From Dulcicalothrix desertica PCC 7102 (GTDB lineage Bacteria; Cyanobacteriota; Cyanobacteriia; Cyanobacteriales; Nostocaceae), in NCBI RefSeq assembly GCF_003991905.1, contig NZ_RSCL01000020.1:81715-145714 (forward strand): DNA of 64,000 nt. Reading direction: 5' to 3'. Made by a program: the position numbers and the translations under genes. Each line of letters starts with the position of its first letter. Position 1 is the stretch's first letter. The notes beneath the pieces are model-generated. The model ran no database searches. It saw only the letters and a list, made by a program, of their open reading frames with translations, and was not told the DNA's origin. Below are positions 7,748 to 13,404 of this stretch, piece by piece.

Positions 7748-8968
7748 GTGAACAACATCAACCAACTATTAATGCAAGCTATCGCAGCACGTGATACACA
7801 TAACTGGTCGTCATTCAATCAATGCAAAGAGCAATTGCTAAAGGAAAACTCAAATTACCTTGAGACTGTCGAGCGTCAAGAAGATTTGTTGGAATTAGCG
7901 CTTTTGATTTTCGAGCATAGTGATTTTCATTCTCGTTGGGAAGTTGCTAAAGTCTTTAAACGTTTGGGGAGTGTCGCAATTCCAAAGCTCGTAGAAATAT
8001 TGTCCGATGATACGCTAGATGAAGAGTTACGTTGGTACGCAGTGCGAATTTTGGGAGAACTCAAAAACGAGTCAGCAATTCCAGTATTAATAGAGTTAAT
8101 TCAAACCGACGACTCGGAAGAATTAAAGTCAATGGCATCTGTCGCATTAGGGCAACTTGGCTCCAAAGCAATTTTATCACTCTCTTCTTTGTTAGCTTAC
8201 TCGGATACGCGGTTCTTAGCTACGCAGGCATTATGTTACATCCGTAACAAAGAGACTATTTTACCCTTACTGAGCGTTGCTGAAGATTCCCAAGTCGCTG
8301 TAAGGGTAGCAGCGATTGAAGCGTTGAGTAGTTTTCATGACTCGCGTGTCCTTGCAGTACTTTTACGTAGTTTAGATGATGAATCAGCACAAGTAAGACG
8401 CACAGTTGTTACAGGATTAGGTTATCGTCGTGATTTGCATAACTCCGAGTTAGATTTAGTCGCATTATTACAACCCAAACTTTACGATTGTGATTCAATA
8501 GTCGCGAGTGCAGCTGTTGTTGCGTTGTCACGGATGGGTAATGATGCTGCTGCACATCATTTGTATCAGTTTCTATTATCACAAAAGGCGCCGCTTCAAT
8601 TACAAATCGAAACAATCCGCGCGCTAACATGGGTTGGTACAATTTCCGGCTTAGAATATCTACAGCAAGCCCTAAATATAATTAGATCAAAAACACTATG
8701 CGAGCAAATTGTCACTGTTTTAGGACGAGTCCAGCAATCAGATTTAATACATAAAGCCGCCGATATTTTATTAGAAATGCTACATCAAAAGCATCCAGCT
8801 TGTTCAATAGATACCGTTAGAAGCGCAATCGCTTTATCTTTAGGACAACTTGGTAGAGTTGATGCTGTTGAACCATTAACTACCCTACTTAATGATAGTA
8901 ATACTCAAGTACGCCTACACGCTCTAGCAGCTTTGAAGAACTTGGCGCGGTTAAACTATTTGCCTTAA
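7748..8968 (+). CDS. HEAT-repeat protein divergent from nirA (possible NirB)
   Basis: A 406-aa soluble protein built of HEAT/PBS-lyase-type helical repeats from about residue 60 to the end. Recurring patterns are AIPVLIELIQTDDSEELKSM, AVRVAAIEAL and AVEPLTTLLNDSNTQVRLHA. The start is GTG. It is transcribed away from nirA across a 414-base promoter region, so it may share nitrogen control. Proteins of this kind beside nirA have been linked to full nitrite reductase activity (NirB) in Anabaena; I recall this only in outline, so no symbol is given. Bilin-lyase-related HEAT proteins are the alternative, but no phycobilisome gene is nearby. Confidence 0.8.
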   Translation: MNNINQLLMQAIAARDTHNWSSFNQCKEQLLKENSNYLETVERQEDLLELALLIFEHSDFHSRWEVAKVFKRLGSVAIPKLVEILSDDTLDEELRWYAVRILGELKNESAIPVLIELIQTDDSEELKSMASVALGQLGSKAILSLSSLLAYSDTRFLATQALCYIRNKETILPLLSVAEDSQVAVRVAAIEALSSFHDSRVLAVLLRSLDDESAQVRRTVVTGLGYRRDLHNSELDLVALLQPKLYDCDSIVASAAVVALSRMGNDAAAHHLYQFLLSQKAPLQLQIETIRALTWVGTISGLEYLQQALNIIRSKTLCEQIVTVLGRVQQSDLIHKAADILLEMLHQKHPACSIDTVRSAIALSLGQLGRVDAVEPLTTLLNDSNTQVRLHALAALKNLARLNYLP

Positions 8969-9078
8969 ATCTATGTAAATCTATACATATGTCATTATTT
9001 TCAGAAGATACATAGGTTTAAGAAAATCGTAAATACGCGCGCAGGAAGCTGGACTGTTATGTACCCTTTTTCCGTTCC

Positions 9079-9385
9079 CTTACCGGAATGTACTTCTCCG
9101 TATAATACTCAAGCTAAGTAAGAATCATCGTAATAAAGCTACATTGTCTTCATTGCTTTTTATCGCTAACTCAAGAACTTTAGCTTTAATACTGAGTGCT
9201 TAAAAAACATCAATTGTTCTTGGTGCATTCCGGTGAGTTCCGGGATATGTAAGACACCTTTATACACAATATATCAACTCCGCAAAGAGTGCATGGTGCT
9301 AGAGCGCTACCAAAGGTAAGTTCAAGTGCGTGTTGGTTCAAAACAACAATCTTTACAGATGCGGGAAAGTCTAGATTTGTTTAAG
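9079..9385 (+). ncRNA. Candidate structured RNA upstream of the TnpB-like gene
   Basis: Non-coding stretch with strong long-range pairing. Bases 9079-9093 pair with 9223-9237 over 15 consecutive positions (two G-U). Inside the loop, 9107-9111 pairs with 9193-9197 and 9112-9118 with 9179-9185. A row of short hairpins follows at about 9276-9352: ACTC/GAGT, TACC/GGTA, TGTTG/CAACA and ATCT/AGAT. Then comes GCGGGAAAG (9361-9369), which resembles a group I intron P element but without the other core elements. I recognise no known family. Direction is assumed from the downstream gene. No protein gene is supportable in 8969-9547. Confidence 0.4.
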
Positions 9386-9547
9386 GGAAGTTAAGAAGTG
9401 AAAACAATTTATTATCAATTCTAGATGTTTTTTAGTGTCAGAAAATTTTGTCATAATTTTTAATAATTAAGCTTTCAGAAAATCCAGATATTATGTTAGA
9501 GTAAATTCATCAACTTTATGAGAACAAAATCTAACTAATTAGTTGTT

Positions 9548-11098
9548 ATGAAAGCAAACAAGCAACAAACAACTGAAGAGTCTTATACAGTAATTACGCC
9601 TGTGATTTATTGCTCAGATGAACCACAAATAGACAGATTAATGAATGCTTGTGGAGTTGTAAGAGCAGTAACTTATAATAAACTAGGGTCACTACAAGGA
9701 TGGAATTTAAATTGGATGTTTGCAGCGCCTCAAATTAAACCAATACTGCCTCCAGAGTCAGTTGGAATGTCGAAGTGCAGGAAAATTTGGGAATGGTCTG
9801 TAAACGATTGCATGAAAGCGATTGCCGCGCAGCAAGAAGCAGCAATCGCTGTGATTATCCGTGAAATCTGGCAGAAATTGCCAATGCAAGTCAATCAACA
9901 AAAACGAATTGCCTGGTTATTAGAGAAAGAAAACAAAAAACTCCATGAACAGGCATTAATATTATTTCCCAAATGTGAAATAGAGTTATCAAGAGAAAAA
10001 TTATTAAATCTGTTATATACAAACCCAACAGAGGTCAATTGGTTGCATCGACGTGTTAGAAAACATTTTCAACGAGGACATACTTATAAACGTAATCAAA
10101 TAGTTTACCAAGGTGCCGGTTATAAGTGTCAGCGAGTTAATCGACACTCAGTAGTATTGACTGTAATGGGTGAAGACGCACGTCAAAAGATTACATTAAA
10201 ATTACGTAGCCGCCAAATCATAAAAGGACAAATTCGATTAATTCGTAACGAGCTTCAAGTACTCGAAGTTCATTGGACAAGAACTAGAACTATCATTTTA
10301 CCCACACAATCTAAGTTACCTGTACTCATTGGTCTCGATAAAGGTTATACAGAAGGCTTTTATACATCAGATGGTGTACAAGTGGCGCCTGGTTTAGGTA
10401 AGTTAATGTCTAATAAAACTAATCGCATTACAGCAAAAAATCGTAATCGCTACCGAATTCGAGCTTTTTCTGAATCATTGAAGAAACATGACCCCGTTTC
10501 TTCAGCACGTATTTTCAAAAATAATCTTGGTTATAAAGTAAAAGAAAGAAAGCTACAAAACGAGAAAAACACAATTAAAAATTTTATTCGCAGAGATTTA
10601 AGACGAGTAATTACAACGAATGTAGAATTATTCTGCGAAGATTTATCCTCTCCAATAAAAAGCAAGACAGGTGCGAAATCAGTTAATCGCAAGCTAAATC
10701 AATGGATGAAAGGAGAGTTACAGACTTCAGTCGATAAGATCGCTCTGGAGACCGGTTCAAAAGTTACGTTAGTCAACTGTGCTTACACATCGCAAATGTG
10801 TTCTCTGACTGGAACGCTTTTAGGTTTTAGAAAAGGGGATCGTTTTACCTGCCACACAGGGGTTGTGCTGCACGCTGACAAAAATGCGGCCATAAATATT
10901 CGTAATCGTGGTACAGATTATGAAATCCAAAGGTTCATGAAATCAGAGGAAGTTTTGGTCGTGTTACTGAATCGTACCATTCGGTATTTAGTTTCGATTG
11001 GGAAGTCTATAAGTGATGCTTTAGAGTTGGGTTGGCTCAACCCAAAGTTTAAAGCAAAAGCTTTAAAACTTGAAACTATTTATCACTCTCAGGGGTAG
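9548..11098 (+). CDS. TnpB/Cas12-like RuvC nuclease, solitary
   Basis: 516-aa protein of the TnpB (IS605 OrfB)/Cas12 class, whose active members are RNA-guided DNA nucleases. The RuvC triad is intact: D264 in IGLDKGYTEG, E364 in LFCEDLSS and D444 in HADKNAAIN. The N-terminus (YTVITPVIYCSDEPQI) fits the wedge domain start. The zinc ribbon before D444 is degenerate: only one Cys of each CxxC pair remains (C418 in QMCSLTG, C435 in FTCHTG). No tnpA transposase or CRISPR array accompanies it. Structured non-coding sequence flanks it on both sides, and a repeat island lies downstream. It could be a transposon accessory nuclease or a domesticated derivative. IscB is excluded (no HNH, contiguous RuvC). 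Confidence 0.8.
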   Translation: MKANKQQTTEESYTVITPVIYCSDEPQIDRLMNACGVVRAVTYNKLGSLQGWNLNWMFAAPQIKPILPPESVGMSKCRKIWEWSVNDCMKAIAAQQEAAIAVIIREIWQKLPMQVNQQKRIAWLLEKENKKLHEQALILFPKCEIELSREKLLNLLYTNPTEVNWLHRRVRKHFQRGHTYKRNQIVYQGAGYKCQRVNRHSVVLTVMGEDARQKITLKLRSRQIIKGQIRLIRNELQVLEVHWTRTRTIILPTQSKLPVLIGLDKGYTEGFYTSDGVQVAPGLGKLMSNKTNRITAKNRNRYRIRAFSESLKKHDPVSSARIFKNNLGYKVKERKLQNEKNTIKNFIRRDLRRVITTNVELFCEDLSSPIKSKTGAKSVNRKLNQWMKGELQTSVDKIALETGSKVTLVNCAYTSQMCSLTGTLLGFRKGDRFTCHTGVVLHADKNAAINIRNRGTDYEIQRFMKSEEVLVVLLNRTIRYLVSIGKSISDALELGWLNPKFKAKALKLETIYHSQG

Positions 11099-11117
11099 AG
11101 AGTACGCTTAAGCCCAC

Positions 11118-11270
11118 CATTGGTAGACAAGACCAAACGTCAACCATAGTCTAAAAGCACTAACCAATGCGTGAAGATAGCAGCAATTAACGACAAATTT
11201 ATTGAAAGCTAGGTAAACATTATATTTAAAATATAAAGGTTTGCATAGGAATAAGTAGATTTAGTTTACC
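11118..11270 (+). ncRNA. Candidate guide-type RNA downstream of the TnpB-like gene
   Basis: Starting 20 bases after the nuclease stop codon, CATTGGT (11118-11124) pairs with ACCAATG (11163-11169), and nested UAGAC (11124-11128) with GUCUA (11149-11153). A third stem pairs GGTAAAC (11212-11218) with GTTTACC (11264-11270) around a perfect TATATTT/AAATATA hairpin (11221-11235). TnpB guide RNAs characteristically lie at and beyond the 3' end of tnpB, so this is the expected place for one. Function is inference; the complementarity is directly visible. Confidence 0.4.
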
Positions 11271-11274
11271 CCTG

Positions 11275-11530
11275 ACAAACACTGGAACTTTGACTCATGT
11301 CATGCTGAGGAACGAAGTATCTAAAATCTGTAACTCATGTCATGCTGAGGAACGAAGCATCTAAAATCTGTAACTCATGTCATGCTGAGGAACAAAGCAT
11401 CTAAAATCTACAACTCATGTCATGCTGAGGAACGTTAACGCAGTTTTCCCGAAGGGTAGCATCTAAAATCTACAACTCATGTCATGCTGAGGAACGTTAA
11501 CGCAGTTTTCCCGAAGGGTAGCATCTAAAA
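11275..11530 (+). repeat. Tandem repeat array, 40-bp and 62-bp units
   Basis: Five head-to-tail copies of a unit containing GTCATGCTGAGGAAC and GCATCTAAAATCT. Three copies are about 40 bases long. Two carry an extra block of about 22 bases (GTTAACGCAGTTTTCCCGAA...) between the same ends. Copies are adjacent with no unique spacers. The core is dispersed in the window at 24250-24282 and 42510-42622. Confidence 0.9.
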
Positions 11531-11606
11531 GATTTTGATGCTTGTTTAAAACTAAACTTATAACCAGTTTGAGAATATATATCCTCGCCTGAAAATTCGC
11601 AAACCA

Positions 11607-11648
11607 TTTCCTAGAGGATAAATCCCGGCAAATATATCCTCTAGGAAA
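11607..11648. repeat. 14-bp perfect inverted repeat within the repeat island
   Basis: TTTCCTAGAGGATA (11607-11620) and its exact complement (11635-11648) flank 14 bases. A related smaller hairpin, GAGGATA/TATCCTC, lies at about 11816-11842. Both sit between the two opposed tandem arrays. No gene is supportable in 11531-11849. Confidence 0.8.
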
Positions 11649-11849
11649 ATTAGCGAAACACAATACTGCCTCTACAGTAATTATTTTTACTATTTTTAAT
11701 CAAAATTAAGTATTTTTTGCAAAAAAAGCGCTATTTTAGAAAATTAATATTTACAAAAGTATCGTTTTTATACAGCTTCATATTTGTCTCTATGTGGAAG
11801 TGGTAGAGTTCAAGCGAGGATAAATTCGATAAATATATCCTCAAAATAT

Positions 11850-12075
11850 TTAAGATGCTTTGTACCTTAGCATGACAAAGATGCTTCGTACCTCAGCATG
11901 ACAAAGATGCTTTGTACCTTAGCATGACAAAGATGCTACCCTGCGGGAAAACTACGTTTACGTTCCTCAGCATGACAAAGATGCTACCCTGCGGGAAAAC
12001 TACGTTTACGTTCCTCAGCATGACAAAGATGCTACCCTGCGGGAAAACTACGTTTACGTTCCTCAGCATGACAAA
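11850..12075 (-). repeat. Tandem repeat array in inverted orientation, 26-bp and 48-bp units
   Basis: Six tandem copies of AGATGCTT...CTCAGCATGACA, the reverse complement of the core repeated at 11275-11530. Three are about 26 bases and three carry a 22-base block (ACCCTGCGGGAAAACTACG...), so the short/long unit architecture is the same as in the first array. The two arrays could pair into a large cruciform or hairpin. A short open frame across it is only repeat-encoded. Confidence 0.9.
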
Positions 12076-12111
12076 AGTTCACATTTTACTCGTTTGGAGT
12101 ATAATGCAACT

Positions 12112-13404
12112 TCACTCAATATAACTACCGACTCTCAAAGGAATTTGAATAATAAACTCACTTCCCTGTCCTAACTCAGAAACACAGTGTAACGAACCAG
12201 CGTGTCTCTCGGTAATAATTTGATAGCTAATAGCTAAACCCATACCTGTACCAACACCAATGGGTTTTGTAGTAAAAAAAGGGTTAAATATTTTTTGTTT
12301 GACTTGTTCTGGTATTCCCAAACCGTTATCAGCTATACAAATTTTAACAATATTGCTTTCGACTAACTCAGTAGAAATTGATATTTCAGGATTTGGGAGT
12401 ACACTTTTCGTAATTTTCTCTTCTATTGCATCAATTGCGTTGCTAAGAAGATTCATAAATACTTGATTTAGCTGTCCTGCATAGCACTCAATAAGAGGTA
12501 GCTCGTTATATTTTTTAATAACTTCAATTGCAAGACGTTCCGAATTAGCTTTAAGTCGATGTCCTAGAATCATCAAAGTACTATCAATTCCTTGATGGAT
12601 ATCAATAGGTTTTATATCAGCTTCATCTAGTCGCGAAAATACTCGTAAAGAAAGCACAATCTCTTGAATGCGCTTTGCACCTACTTTCATTGACTGAAGT
12701 AGCTTGGGGAAATCTTCTATTAAATAATTTAGTTCGCTTGTTTCTATTTCAGCTTCGACTTCTGGTAAAGGGTTGGGATAGTGATGTTGATAAACGTTAA
12801 TTACTCTCAGTAATTCTTGAGCATATTCGTTAGCGTGAGTAAGGTTAGCAGAGATAAAATTAACTGGGTTGTTAATTTCATGCGCGACACCTGCAACTAA
12901 TTGACCCAAACTAGACATTTTCTCACTCTGAATAATTTGGGTTTGAGCTTGTTGCAACTCTGTTAAAGTTTGCTCAAGTCTATTTTGTGCTTCAGTACGT
13001 TCGTTTACTTCCTTCTTCAACATTAGCTCTGTGTTTCTTAGCGCTAAGTGAATGTTGACTCTCGCTAGCACCTCCTCTACTTGAATTGGTTTACTAATAT
13101 AGTCTACGGCGCCTCCAAGCAAACCTTTGACTTTATTTTCAGTATCAGAAAGTGCCGTCAAAAAAATTACTGGTATTTCTTTTATCCTAGAATCGGCTTT
13201 TATCCGCTTACAAGTTTCAAAACCATCAATTCCAGGCATCATAATATCTAATAAAATCATATCTGGCTGGATAACTGGTAGTTTTTCAAGTGCCATTTCG
13301 CCACTTTTGACAACATACACTTTAAATCCAGCTTCATGTAAAATATCAAATAATATACGTATATTATTAGGATTGTCATCAACAATCAAAATTGAGTTTT
13401 TCAC
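12112..13404 (-). CDS. Response regulator-histidine kinase hybrid
   Basis: 430-aa cytoplasmic signalling protein. Residues 1-120 are a receiver domain (ILIVDDNPNN, phospho-acceptor Asp in ILLDIMMPGIDG, conserved K in PVIFLTAL...SKPI). A coiled coil follows (about 130-165), then a HisKA dimerisation domain with the phosphorylatable His in GVAHEINNP, and a HATPase_c domain with N box (NLLSNAIDAI), G1 box (DNGLGIP) and G2 box (GTGMGLAIS). It has no membrane segments, so input probably comes through the receiver. It follows the MASE1 kinase by 12 bases in the same operon and is a plausible partner. No target gene is evident. Confidence 0.9.
   Translation of the reverse strand: MKNSILIVDDNPNNIRILFDILHEAGFKVYVVKSGEMALEKLPVIQPDMILLDIMMPGIDGFETCKRIKADSRIKEIPVIFLTALSDTENKVKGLLGGAVDYISKPIQVEEVLARVNIHLALRNTELMLKKEVNERTEAQNRLEQTLTELQQAQTQIIQSEKMSSLGQLVAGVAHEINNPVNFISANLTHANEYAQELLRVINVYQHHYPNPLPEVEAEIETSELNYLIEDFPKLLQSMKVGAKRIQEIVLSLRVFSRLDEADIKPIDIHQGIDSTLMILGHRLKANSERLAIEVIKKYNELPLIECYAGQLNQVFMNLLSNAIDAIEEKITKSVLPNPEISISTELVESNIVKICIADNGLGIPEQVKQKIFNPFFTTKPIGVGTGMGLAISYQIITERHAGSLHCVSELGQGSEFIIQIPLRVGSYIE

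What the first reader, a model, noticed from the sequence alone, without database searches (positions are those of the whole stretch)
9079..11270. RuvC nuclease gene framed by structured RNA on both sides
A TnpB/Cas12-like gene with an intact D264-E364-D444 triad has no tnpA and no CRISPR. Strong complementarity occurs upstream (15-bp long-range stem plus nested stems) and downstream (nested stems from 20 bases after the stop). TnpB normally has only a 3' guide RNA, so the 5' structure is unexplained. Options: an intron-transposon chimera (IStron-like), a two-part guide RNA, or an autoregulatory leader of a domesticated nuclease.
Basis: partly seen in the sequence, partly recalled or inferred. 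Interest (0 to 1): 0.78.

Follow-up and report, generated by a model that had tools for sequence, protein, structure and literature searches.

The report
TnpB transposon with nested mini-transposon upstream
The gene looks like an RNA-guided DNA-cutting enzyme carried by a small bacterial transposon; the expected guide-RNA structure lies after the gene, and the puzzling structure before the gene is a second, tiny transposon that landed there, so the find is mostly ordinary.

Summary
The features are real; the puzzle dissolves. The unit is a mobile element (about 8949-11271) in a cyanobacterium: six of six congeners hold the empty site TTGGCGCC, and a 90% identical copy with unrelated flanks lies on a Calothrix plasmid. 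It encodes a TnpB (RuvC triad invariant in 12 of 12 aligned; dN/dS about 0.14). Relatives sit behind IS607-type transposases (5 of 16 loci), so this is a tnpA-less IS607 derivative.

The 3' structure is the expected right-end guide RNA, with shared end and covarying stems. The 5' stem is a nested MITE, 9079-9237, flanked by TTCC duplications. The repeat occurs in 97 of 145 family genomes; 44 of 49 sampled copies have identical 4-bp flanks; none of 39 MITE loci contains tnpB or tnpA. Outside the MITE, 5' folding is unremarkable.

No group I intron and no CRISPR array were found. IStron is rejected; a split guide RNA or leader has little support. Side interest: these TnpBs lack the zinc ribbon.

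The parts
8949..11271 (+). Mobile TnpB element, 2323 bp, tnpA-less IS607 derivative (ends uncertain by 1 bp)
   Evidence: Empty site TTGGCGCC in 6 of 6 congeners; 89.6-89.8% identical copy on a Calothrix plasmid with different flanks
8964..9022 (.). Left-end imperfect hairpin CTTAAATCTATGTA...TACATAGGTTTAAG, subterminal inverted repeat of the element
   Evidence: Sequence; fold of 8949-9078 only z -1.35; weak similarity (68-71%, E 0.008) to left ends of L043 and L003; likeness to tnpA-bearing relatives judged by eye
9075..9078 (.). Target-site duplication TTCC, left copy
9079..9237 (.).
   Evidence: Nine-copy alignment; model R1 matches in 97 of 145 family genomes; 4-bp duplications in 44 of 49 sampled copies
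9238..9241 (.). Target-site duplication TTCC, right copy
9242..9547 (.). AT-rich spacer before tnpB, no structure above chance and no tnpA remnant found
   Evidence: fold z +0.46; tblastn with five TnpAs not significant; 80.4% identity to L037 over 9238-9547, the least conserved of five segments
9548..11098 (+). tnpB, 516 aa, RuvC triad D264-E364-D444 intact, TNB domain without a zinc ribbon
   Evidence: dN 0.035, dS 0.252
11099..11271 (+). Right-end (guide) RNA scaffold: core pairing 11106-11108 with 11179-11181, stem 11115-11124 with 11163-11173, conserved GATAGCAGCAATTAA block, 3' end at TTTACCCC
   Evidence: Alignment of 10 elements, covarying pairs, arm-permutation test 1 of 3001, fold
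11272..11292 (+). Predicted guide segment (flanking DNA CTGACAAACACTGGAACTTTG), which resembles the uninterrupted site of congeners
   Evidence: guide function inferred from TnpB biology
7748..8948 (+). HEAT-repeat gene whose last codons were cut off by the insertion (...NLAPDKHWN... became ...NLARLNYLP, stop at 8968)

Best explanation
Two unrelated mobile elements are nested. The outer one is a tnpA-less IS607-derived element (about 8949-11271) that encodes a TnpB. The 3' end of its transcript is the right-end guide RNA, and the guide is the host DNA just beyond the right end. TnpB loaded with this RNA would recognise and cut the uninterrupted TTGGCGC/CTGACAAACA site, so that the element is kept or copied back after excision by an IS607 TnpA acting in trans. 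Shown: element ends, empty site, conserved RuvC triad, purifying selection, covarying 3' RNA, IS607 TnpA in relatives and in the same genome. Inferred: transcription and processing of the RNA, RNA-guided cleavage, action of TnpA in trans, role in retention. The inner element is a 159-bp MITE, probably of an IS701/IS4-like family. Because both known copies of the outer element carry it at the same place, it most likely inserted between the left end and tnpB before they parted. Its terminal inverted repeats make the 5' stem. The MITE most likely has no role in TnpB function.
For: Empty site in 6 of 6 congeners. Second copy with the same MITE at the same place, between genes on a plasmid. TTCC on both sides; 44 of 49 sampled copies with identical 4-bp flanks; 97 of 145 family genomes hold the repeat; 0 of 39 MITE loci (37 distinct places) encode a relative of tnpB or tnpA in their flanks of up to 1.5 kb. 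An element of 1419 bp with the same inverted repeats and CTAA/CTAA flanks in the same genome, with IS701/IS4-like transposase matches. IS607 TnpA (NF033518, 200 bits, cut-off 110) next to a related tnpB in L042, MerR plus resolvase domains in L041 and L042; 13 matches to that TnpA in the window's genome. 3' stems covary. dN/dS about 0.14. Fold matches: Cas12f, ISFba1 TnpB, Cas12m.
Against: The element itself has no tnpA, and its junctions do not show the matching GG dinucleotide reported for IS607 (left GC, right CC). NCBIfam's guided_TnpB cut-off is not reached (71.6 of 100 bits). The MITE segment is a little better conserved between the two copies than the spacer beside it (89.2% against 80.4%, Fisher p 0.017; not different from third codon positions, p 0.24). 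5 of 49 sampled MITE copies lack matching flanks. The proposed parent element's transposase is in two ORF pieces; one matches IS701/IS4 models below their cut-offs, the other nothing. 7 of 19 tnpB loci examined lack the right-end motif. The structure model is of middling quality (pLDDT 76, pTM 0.46) and its TM-scores to the hits are low.
Confidence: 0.93

Rival explanations
1. IStron: a group I (or group II) intron fused to the transposon, which splices the insertion out of the host transcript.
For: The insertion lies in a coding sequence, and removal of the element restores the HEAT reading frame, as it would for any insertion without a target duplication.
Against: No group I intron match even at E up to 5, only a reverse-strand group II domain match at E 2.6, far below its cut-off. 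The Calothrix copy is intergenic. The 5' structure is a MITE.
Confidence: 0.01
2. Two-part guide RNA: the 5' RNA pairs with or complements the 3' RNA as a tracr-like partner.
For: Strong folding of 9079-9237 (z -5.31).
Against: Apart from L037, blastn found no sequence like the 5' structured segment in the TnpB loci then fetched, although relatives keep the 3' RNA; and the segment occurs in many genomes away from TnpB.
Confidence: 0.01
3. The MITE, once inserted, was kept as a structured leader or insulator that controls tnpB expression.
For: MITE 141 of 158 identical between the two element copies against 234 of 291 in the spacer (p 0.017); 41 of 46 pairs of the window fold are standard pairs in L037.
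Against: MITE conservation does not differ from third codon positions (p 0.24). Only two copies are known, and the promoter and terminator scans found nothing above chance.
Confidence: 0.05

Closest known systems
IS607-family transposons with TnpB and right-end RNA (e.g. ISXfa1, PMC10711439; ISFba1 TnpB structure 8iaz)
   Same: TnpB downstream of, or here in place of, a serine-recombinase tnpA; 3' guide RNA that runs across the right end; no target duplication; subterminal inverted repeats
   Different: tnpA missing in this copy; 5' region enlarged by a MITE; junction dinucleotide not GG; TnpB lacks the zinc ribbon and has D-K-G rather than the DPG signature reported for pro-Fanzors
Cyanobacterial MITEs (Nezha and others, named in PMC10969869)
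   Same: Short, non-coding, terminal inverted repeats, many copies in filamentous cyanobacteria
   Different: Whether this family equals a named one was not tested; no Nezha sequence was at hand
IStrons (PMC4227781, listing only)
   Same: Transposon with a long structured non-coding 5' part
   Different: No intron found; the 5' structure is a separate transposon
Type V CRISPR effectors Cas12f / C2c8
   Same: RuvC and TNB fold, similar size
   Different: No CRISPR array in the window; the predicted guide scaffold lies in the transposon end

Membership tests
TnpB nucleases | RuvC D-E-D triad | tested here: met
   Invariant in 12 of 12 aligned sequences
TnpB nucleases | TNB domain (PF07282) | tested here: met
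   45.8 bits, cut-off 26.3
TnpB nucleases | NCBIfam guided_TnpB cut-off | tested here: not met
   71.6 bits, cut-off 100; three relatives tested, two of them beside an IS607-type tnpA, also fall short
TnpB nucleases | Four-cysteine zinc ribbon (recalled as usual, not required in all members) | tested here: not met
   No cysteine at 421 or 437, which align with the second cysteine of each knuckle of a Cas12f chain, in 12 of 12
TnpB nucleases | 3' guide RNA ending at the right end | tested here: met
   Conserved, covarying 3' region ending in TTTACCCC; transcript itself not shown
TnpB nucleases | RNA-guided DNA cleavage | not testable with these tools
   needs an assay
IS607 family | Serine-recombinase TnpA with N-terminal MerR domain | tested here: not met
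   Absent in this copy; such ORFs lie upstream of related tnpB in L008, L009, L015, L041, L042 (domains tested for L041 and L042)
IS607 family | No target-site duplication | tested here: met
   Empty-site comparison
IS607 family | Matching dinucleotide (GG) at both junctions | tested here: inconclusive
   Left GC, right CC around a GGCGCC target
MITE | Terminal inverted repeats, target duplication, many copies, no transposase gene | tested here: met
MITE | Parent autonomous element with the same ends | tested here: inconclusive
   L154 has the ends and CTAA/CTAA flanks, but its transposase matches are below cut-off and in two pieces
IStron | Group I intron | tested here: not met
CRISPR type V | CRISPR array nearby | tested here: not met
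   (64-kb window only, no dedicated CRISPR finder)

The most novel reading that the evidence does not exclude
A MITE that landed in the 5' region of a TnpB element was kept as a structured RNA leader, so that a transposon became the regulatory part of an RNA-guided nuclease of another transposon.
Probability: 0.05. Interest if true: 0.5.

Novelty: new member of a known kind. Interest (0 to 1): 0.22.

Why it matters
It removes a false lead: a strong, covarying 5' structure next to a TnpB gene is explained by a nested MITE, which warns that covariation alone cannot tell RNA structure from paired transposon ends. What remains of interest is a group of IS607-linked cyanobacterial TnpBs without a zinc ribbon, which could show how far the TNB domain can change while the nuclease stays under selection.

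Tried and rejected
Rfam at gathering score over the whole window (0 hits) and at E up to 5 over 8900-11700 (four matches, all below cut-off). tnpA remnants in the 5' region: tblastn with five TnpAs, best E 0.91 in the window; a degenerate tnpA start at about 9009 was considered but is only an impression. A first MITE alignment with wrong limits was replaced. In one search the stretch shown for L129 was misplaced; one search shows its site. RNAalifold on the MAFFT alignment of the 3' regions found 6 pairs only, probably because the stems misalign; the arms were therefore compared directly, with cross-pairing as control (own mean 16.5, cross mean 13.1, 1 of 3001 permutations reach the sum). That alignment holds 10 of the 12 loci with the right-end motif; L008 and L014 were left out. 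7 of the 19 loci (L011, L012, L015-L018, L043) showed no such motif. In one search the rule for MITE ends was: where the model match did not end in TGAG, one base was added; the same rule was used for every copy. Promoter-like sites: fewer than in shuffles; terminator-like sites: at shuffle level. Papers: passages of PMC10711439 (plus its section 25), PMC6188088, PMC10969869; search listing with the start of the abstract only for PMC4227781 and PMC11061315; the Nezha paper was not read (seen in a reference list); PMC2950511 is not held. One search for TnpB, zinc finger, cyanobacteri, IS607 and lack gave 0 papers, which is no proof that the zinc-ribbon loss is undescribed. That IS701 elements make 4-bp duplications, and the usual CxxC pattern of TnpB, are recalled.

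Full report
What was claimed and what is there. The stem arms at 9079-9093 and 9223-9237, the nuclease ORF 9548-11098 with D264, E364 and D444, and the structured 3' region are all real. The segment 9079-9237 folds far better than its shuffles (z -5.31, 0 of 200), the 3' region moderately (z -2.68, 4 of 200). The rest of the 5' region does not: 8949-9078 has z -1.35 (17 of 200) and 9242-9547 has z +0.46 (65 of 100). So the strong 5' structure sits in one 159-base segment.

The outer element. blastn of 8500-12500 against the loci then fetched found one long match outside the window's own genome, 89.6% over 8943-11273, on plasmid2 of Calothrix sp. NIES-4105 (L037); the plasmid collection gives 89.8% and one record of 72,556. 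Flanks are unrelated. The host HEAT gene has orthologues in all 7 genomes of the genus that were searched, the window's own included. The other 6 keep the uninterrupted TTGGCGCC. Joining the window's flanks gives TTGGCGCCTGACAAACACTGG, against TTGGCGCCTGACAAACATTGG in L128 and TTGGCGCCAGACAAACACTGG in L131. The element is therefore 8949-11271, within 1 bp, with no target duplication. It replaces the end of the HEAT protein (...NLAPDKHWN...) with ...NLARLNYLP. Only two full copies were found in the 7 genomes, this one and the one in G383; the latter has the coordinates of the Calothrix plasmid record. A second relative (57% identity, matched in two pieces that lie in different frames) and a fragment lie elsewhere in the window's genome. 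In a wider draw of the order, 186 of 291 genomes have some match to the protein at E up to 1e-3, many of them weak and probably other TnpBs.

The nuclease. Pfam's TNB domain is met; NCBIfam's TnpB model is matched at 71.6 bits, below its cut-off of 100. The profile of 12 sequences matches Cas12f, TnpB and Cas12m chains in the PDB, and the predicted fold matches Cas12f, ISFba1 TnpB and Cas12m, with low TM-scores; the model's domain arrangement is uncertain. Between the two copies, dN is 0.035 and dS 0.252, and differences by codon position are 20, 18, 76: the protein is under purifying selection. In one search I screened 16 loci with related tnpB for upstream ORFs. Five (L008, L009, L015, L041, L042) have an ORF of the IS607 TnpA kind just upstream, or one gene away in L041. 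L042's was tested by NCBIfam (NF033518, 200 bits), L041's and L042's by Pfam (MerR plus resolvase); the other three were judged by eye. Three (L038-L040) have a small divergent ORF instead. The other eight have neither as a full ORF. The window's genome holds 13 matches to such a TnpA, the best two at 53 and 55% identity, which could act in trans.

The 3' RNA. Ten elements aligned from the tnpB stop share a block around GATAGCAGCAATTAA and the end TTTACCCC (TTTACCCT in L003, TTCACCCC in three). RNAalifold finds 6 pairs, 4 with compensatory changes, for example C-G in 5 and G-C in 4 sequences. The arms of the main stem pair better within an element than between elements; 1 of 3001 permutations reaches the observed sum. 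Related sequences can inflate such a test. [quoted passage not shown]). The segment after the end, CTGACAAACACTGGAACTTTGA, would be the guide; the empty sites of L128 and L131 differ from it at few positions.

The 5' structure. A search with the 5' region found its segment 9089-9227 in other genomes of the family. Aligned copies have shared ends, CTCATATCTTGCACC...GGTGCAAGATGTGAG. A sequence model built from 9 copies, the window's and L037's included, matches 97 of 145 family genomes at E up to 1e-4, with about 600 matches when the listed rows are summed; at most 20 candidates per genome were scored. I sampled 50 copies, 30 loci chosen by the tool and 20 chosen by me from three genomes with near-identical copies. 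One was dropped as a duplicate flank. Of the remaining 49, 44 have identical 4-bp flanks; the five others are L078, L082, L091, L106 and L122. The window has TTCC on both sides, and so has L037. None of 39 MITE loci (37 distinct places, among them L077-L106) encodes a relative of the TnpB or TnpAs within flanks of up to 1.5 kb. In the window's genome, L154 holds a 1419-bp element with the same inverted repeats (CTCATATCTTGCACC and GGTGCAAGATATGAG) and CTAA on both sides. One of its two ORF pieces matches IS701 and IS4 transposase models, below their cut-offs; the other matches nothing. This is the likely parent. The window's MITE has altered ends (CCGGAATG in place of TATCTTG), changed in both arms. 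Pair counts therefore show compensatory changes, as paired transposon ends can.

Alternatives. No group I intron match and an intergenic second copy speak against an IStron. Apart from L037, no TnpB locus then fetched has sequence like the structured segment, which speaks against a split guide. One result leans the other way: between the two copies the MITE is 141 of 158 identical, the spacer 234 of 291 (p 0.017), though it is not different from third codon positions (p 0.24), and 41 of 46 pairs of the window fold remain standard pairs in L037. With two copies this cannot carry a claim of function.

Verdict. A tnpA-less IS607-derived TnpB element with a nested MITE: a new member of a known kind, well explained. 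The zinc-ribbon loss in this TnpB group is the part worth a specialist's look.

Noticed in passing
window 9548-11095, residues 418, 421, 435, 437; alignment: The TnpB group lacks the zinc ribbon: no cysteine at 421 or 437 in 12 of 12 sequences. Position 418 is C in 4 and D in 8; position 435 is C in 3 and R in 9, so a C-C or D-R pair seems to replace the metal site (one sequence, L041, has C and R).
   Followed up: partly
L038:3759-3932, L039:3753-3926, L040:3754-3942 (minus strand): A small conserved ORF (57-62 aa, MGKKK(L/V/I)RG...), divergent from tnpB, stands where relatives have tnpA; the L038 and L039 versions gave no Pfam match. It looks like a ribbon-helix-helix regulator by eye only.
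   Followed up: partly
L041:3507-3986: A 159-aa ORF without Pfam or NCBIfam match lies between tnpA and tnpB of an IS607-type element.
   Followed up: partly
window 11294-11518: Tandem repeats (40 and 62 bp) are absent from L131 and start about 22 bases after the right end of the element, near where a TnpB cut would fall; may be coincidence. Similar repeats, some inverted, lie at 11839-12077.
   Followed up: partly
L043:3914-5077: In a Moorena element a tnpA-like start (MHRLDDLVPMGEAAKVRGVS) is fused in frame to tnpB, an apparent internal deletion of tnpA.
   Followed up: no
L155 (G349:C180:46800-49900), contig bases 48337-48419: A lone right end, 87% identical to the last 82 bases of the element; the ORFs listed around it show no TnpB.
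   Followed up: partly
G361, G299, G335 and others: The MITE has 20 matches, the number scored, in eleven of the listed genomes, with many copies of equal score in G361, which suggests recent activity.
   Followed up: partly
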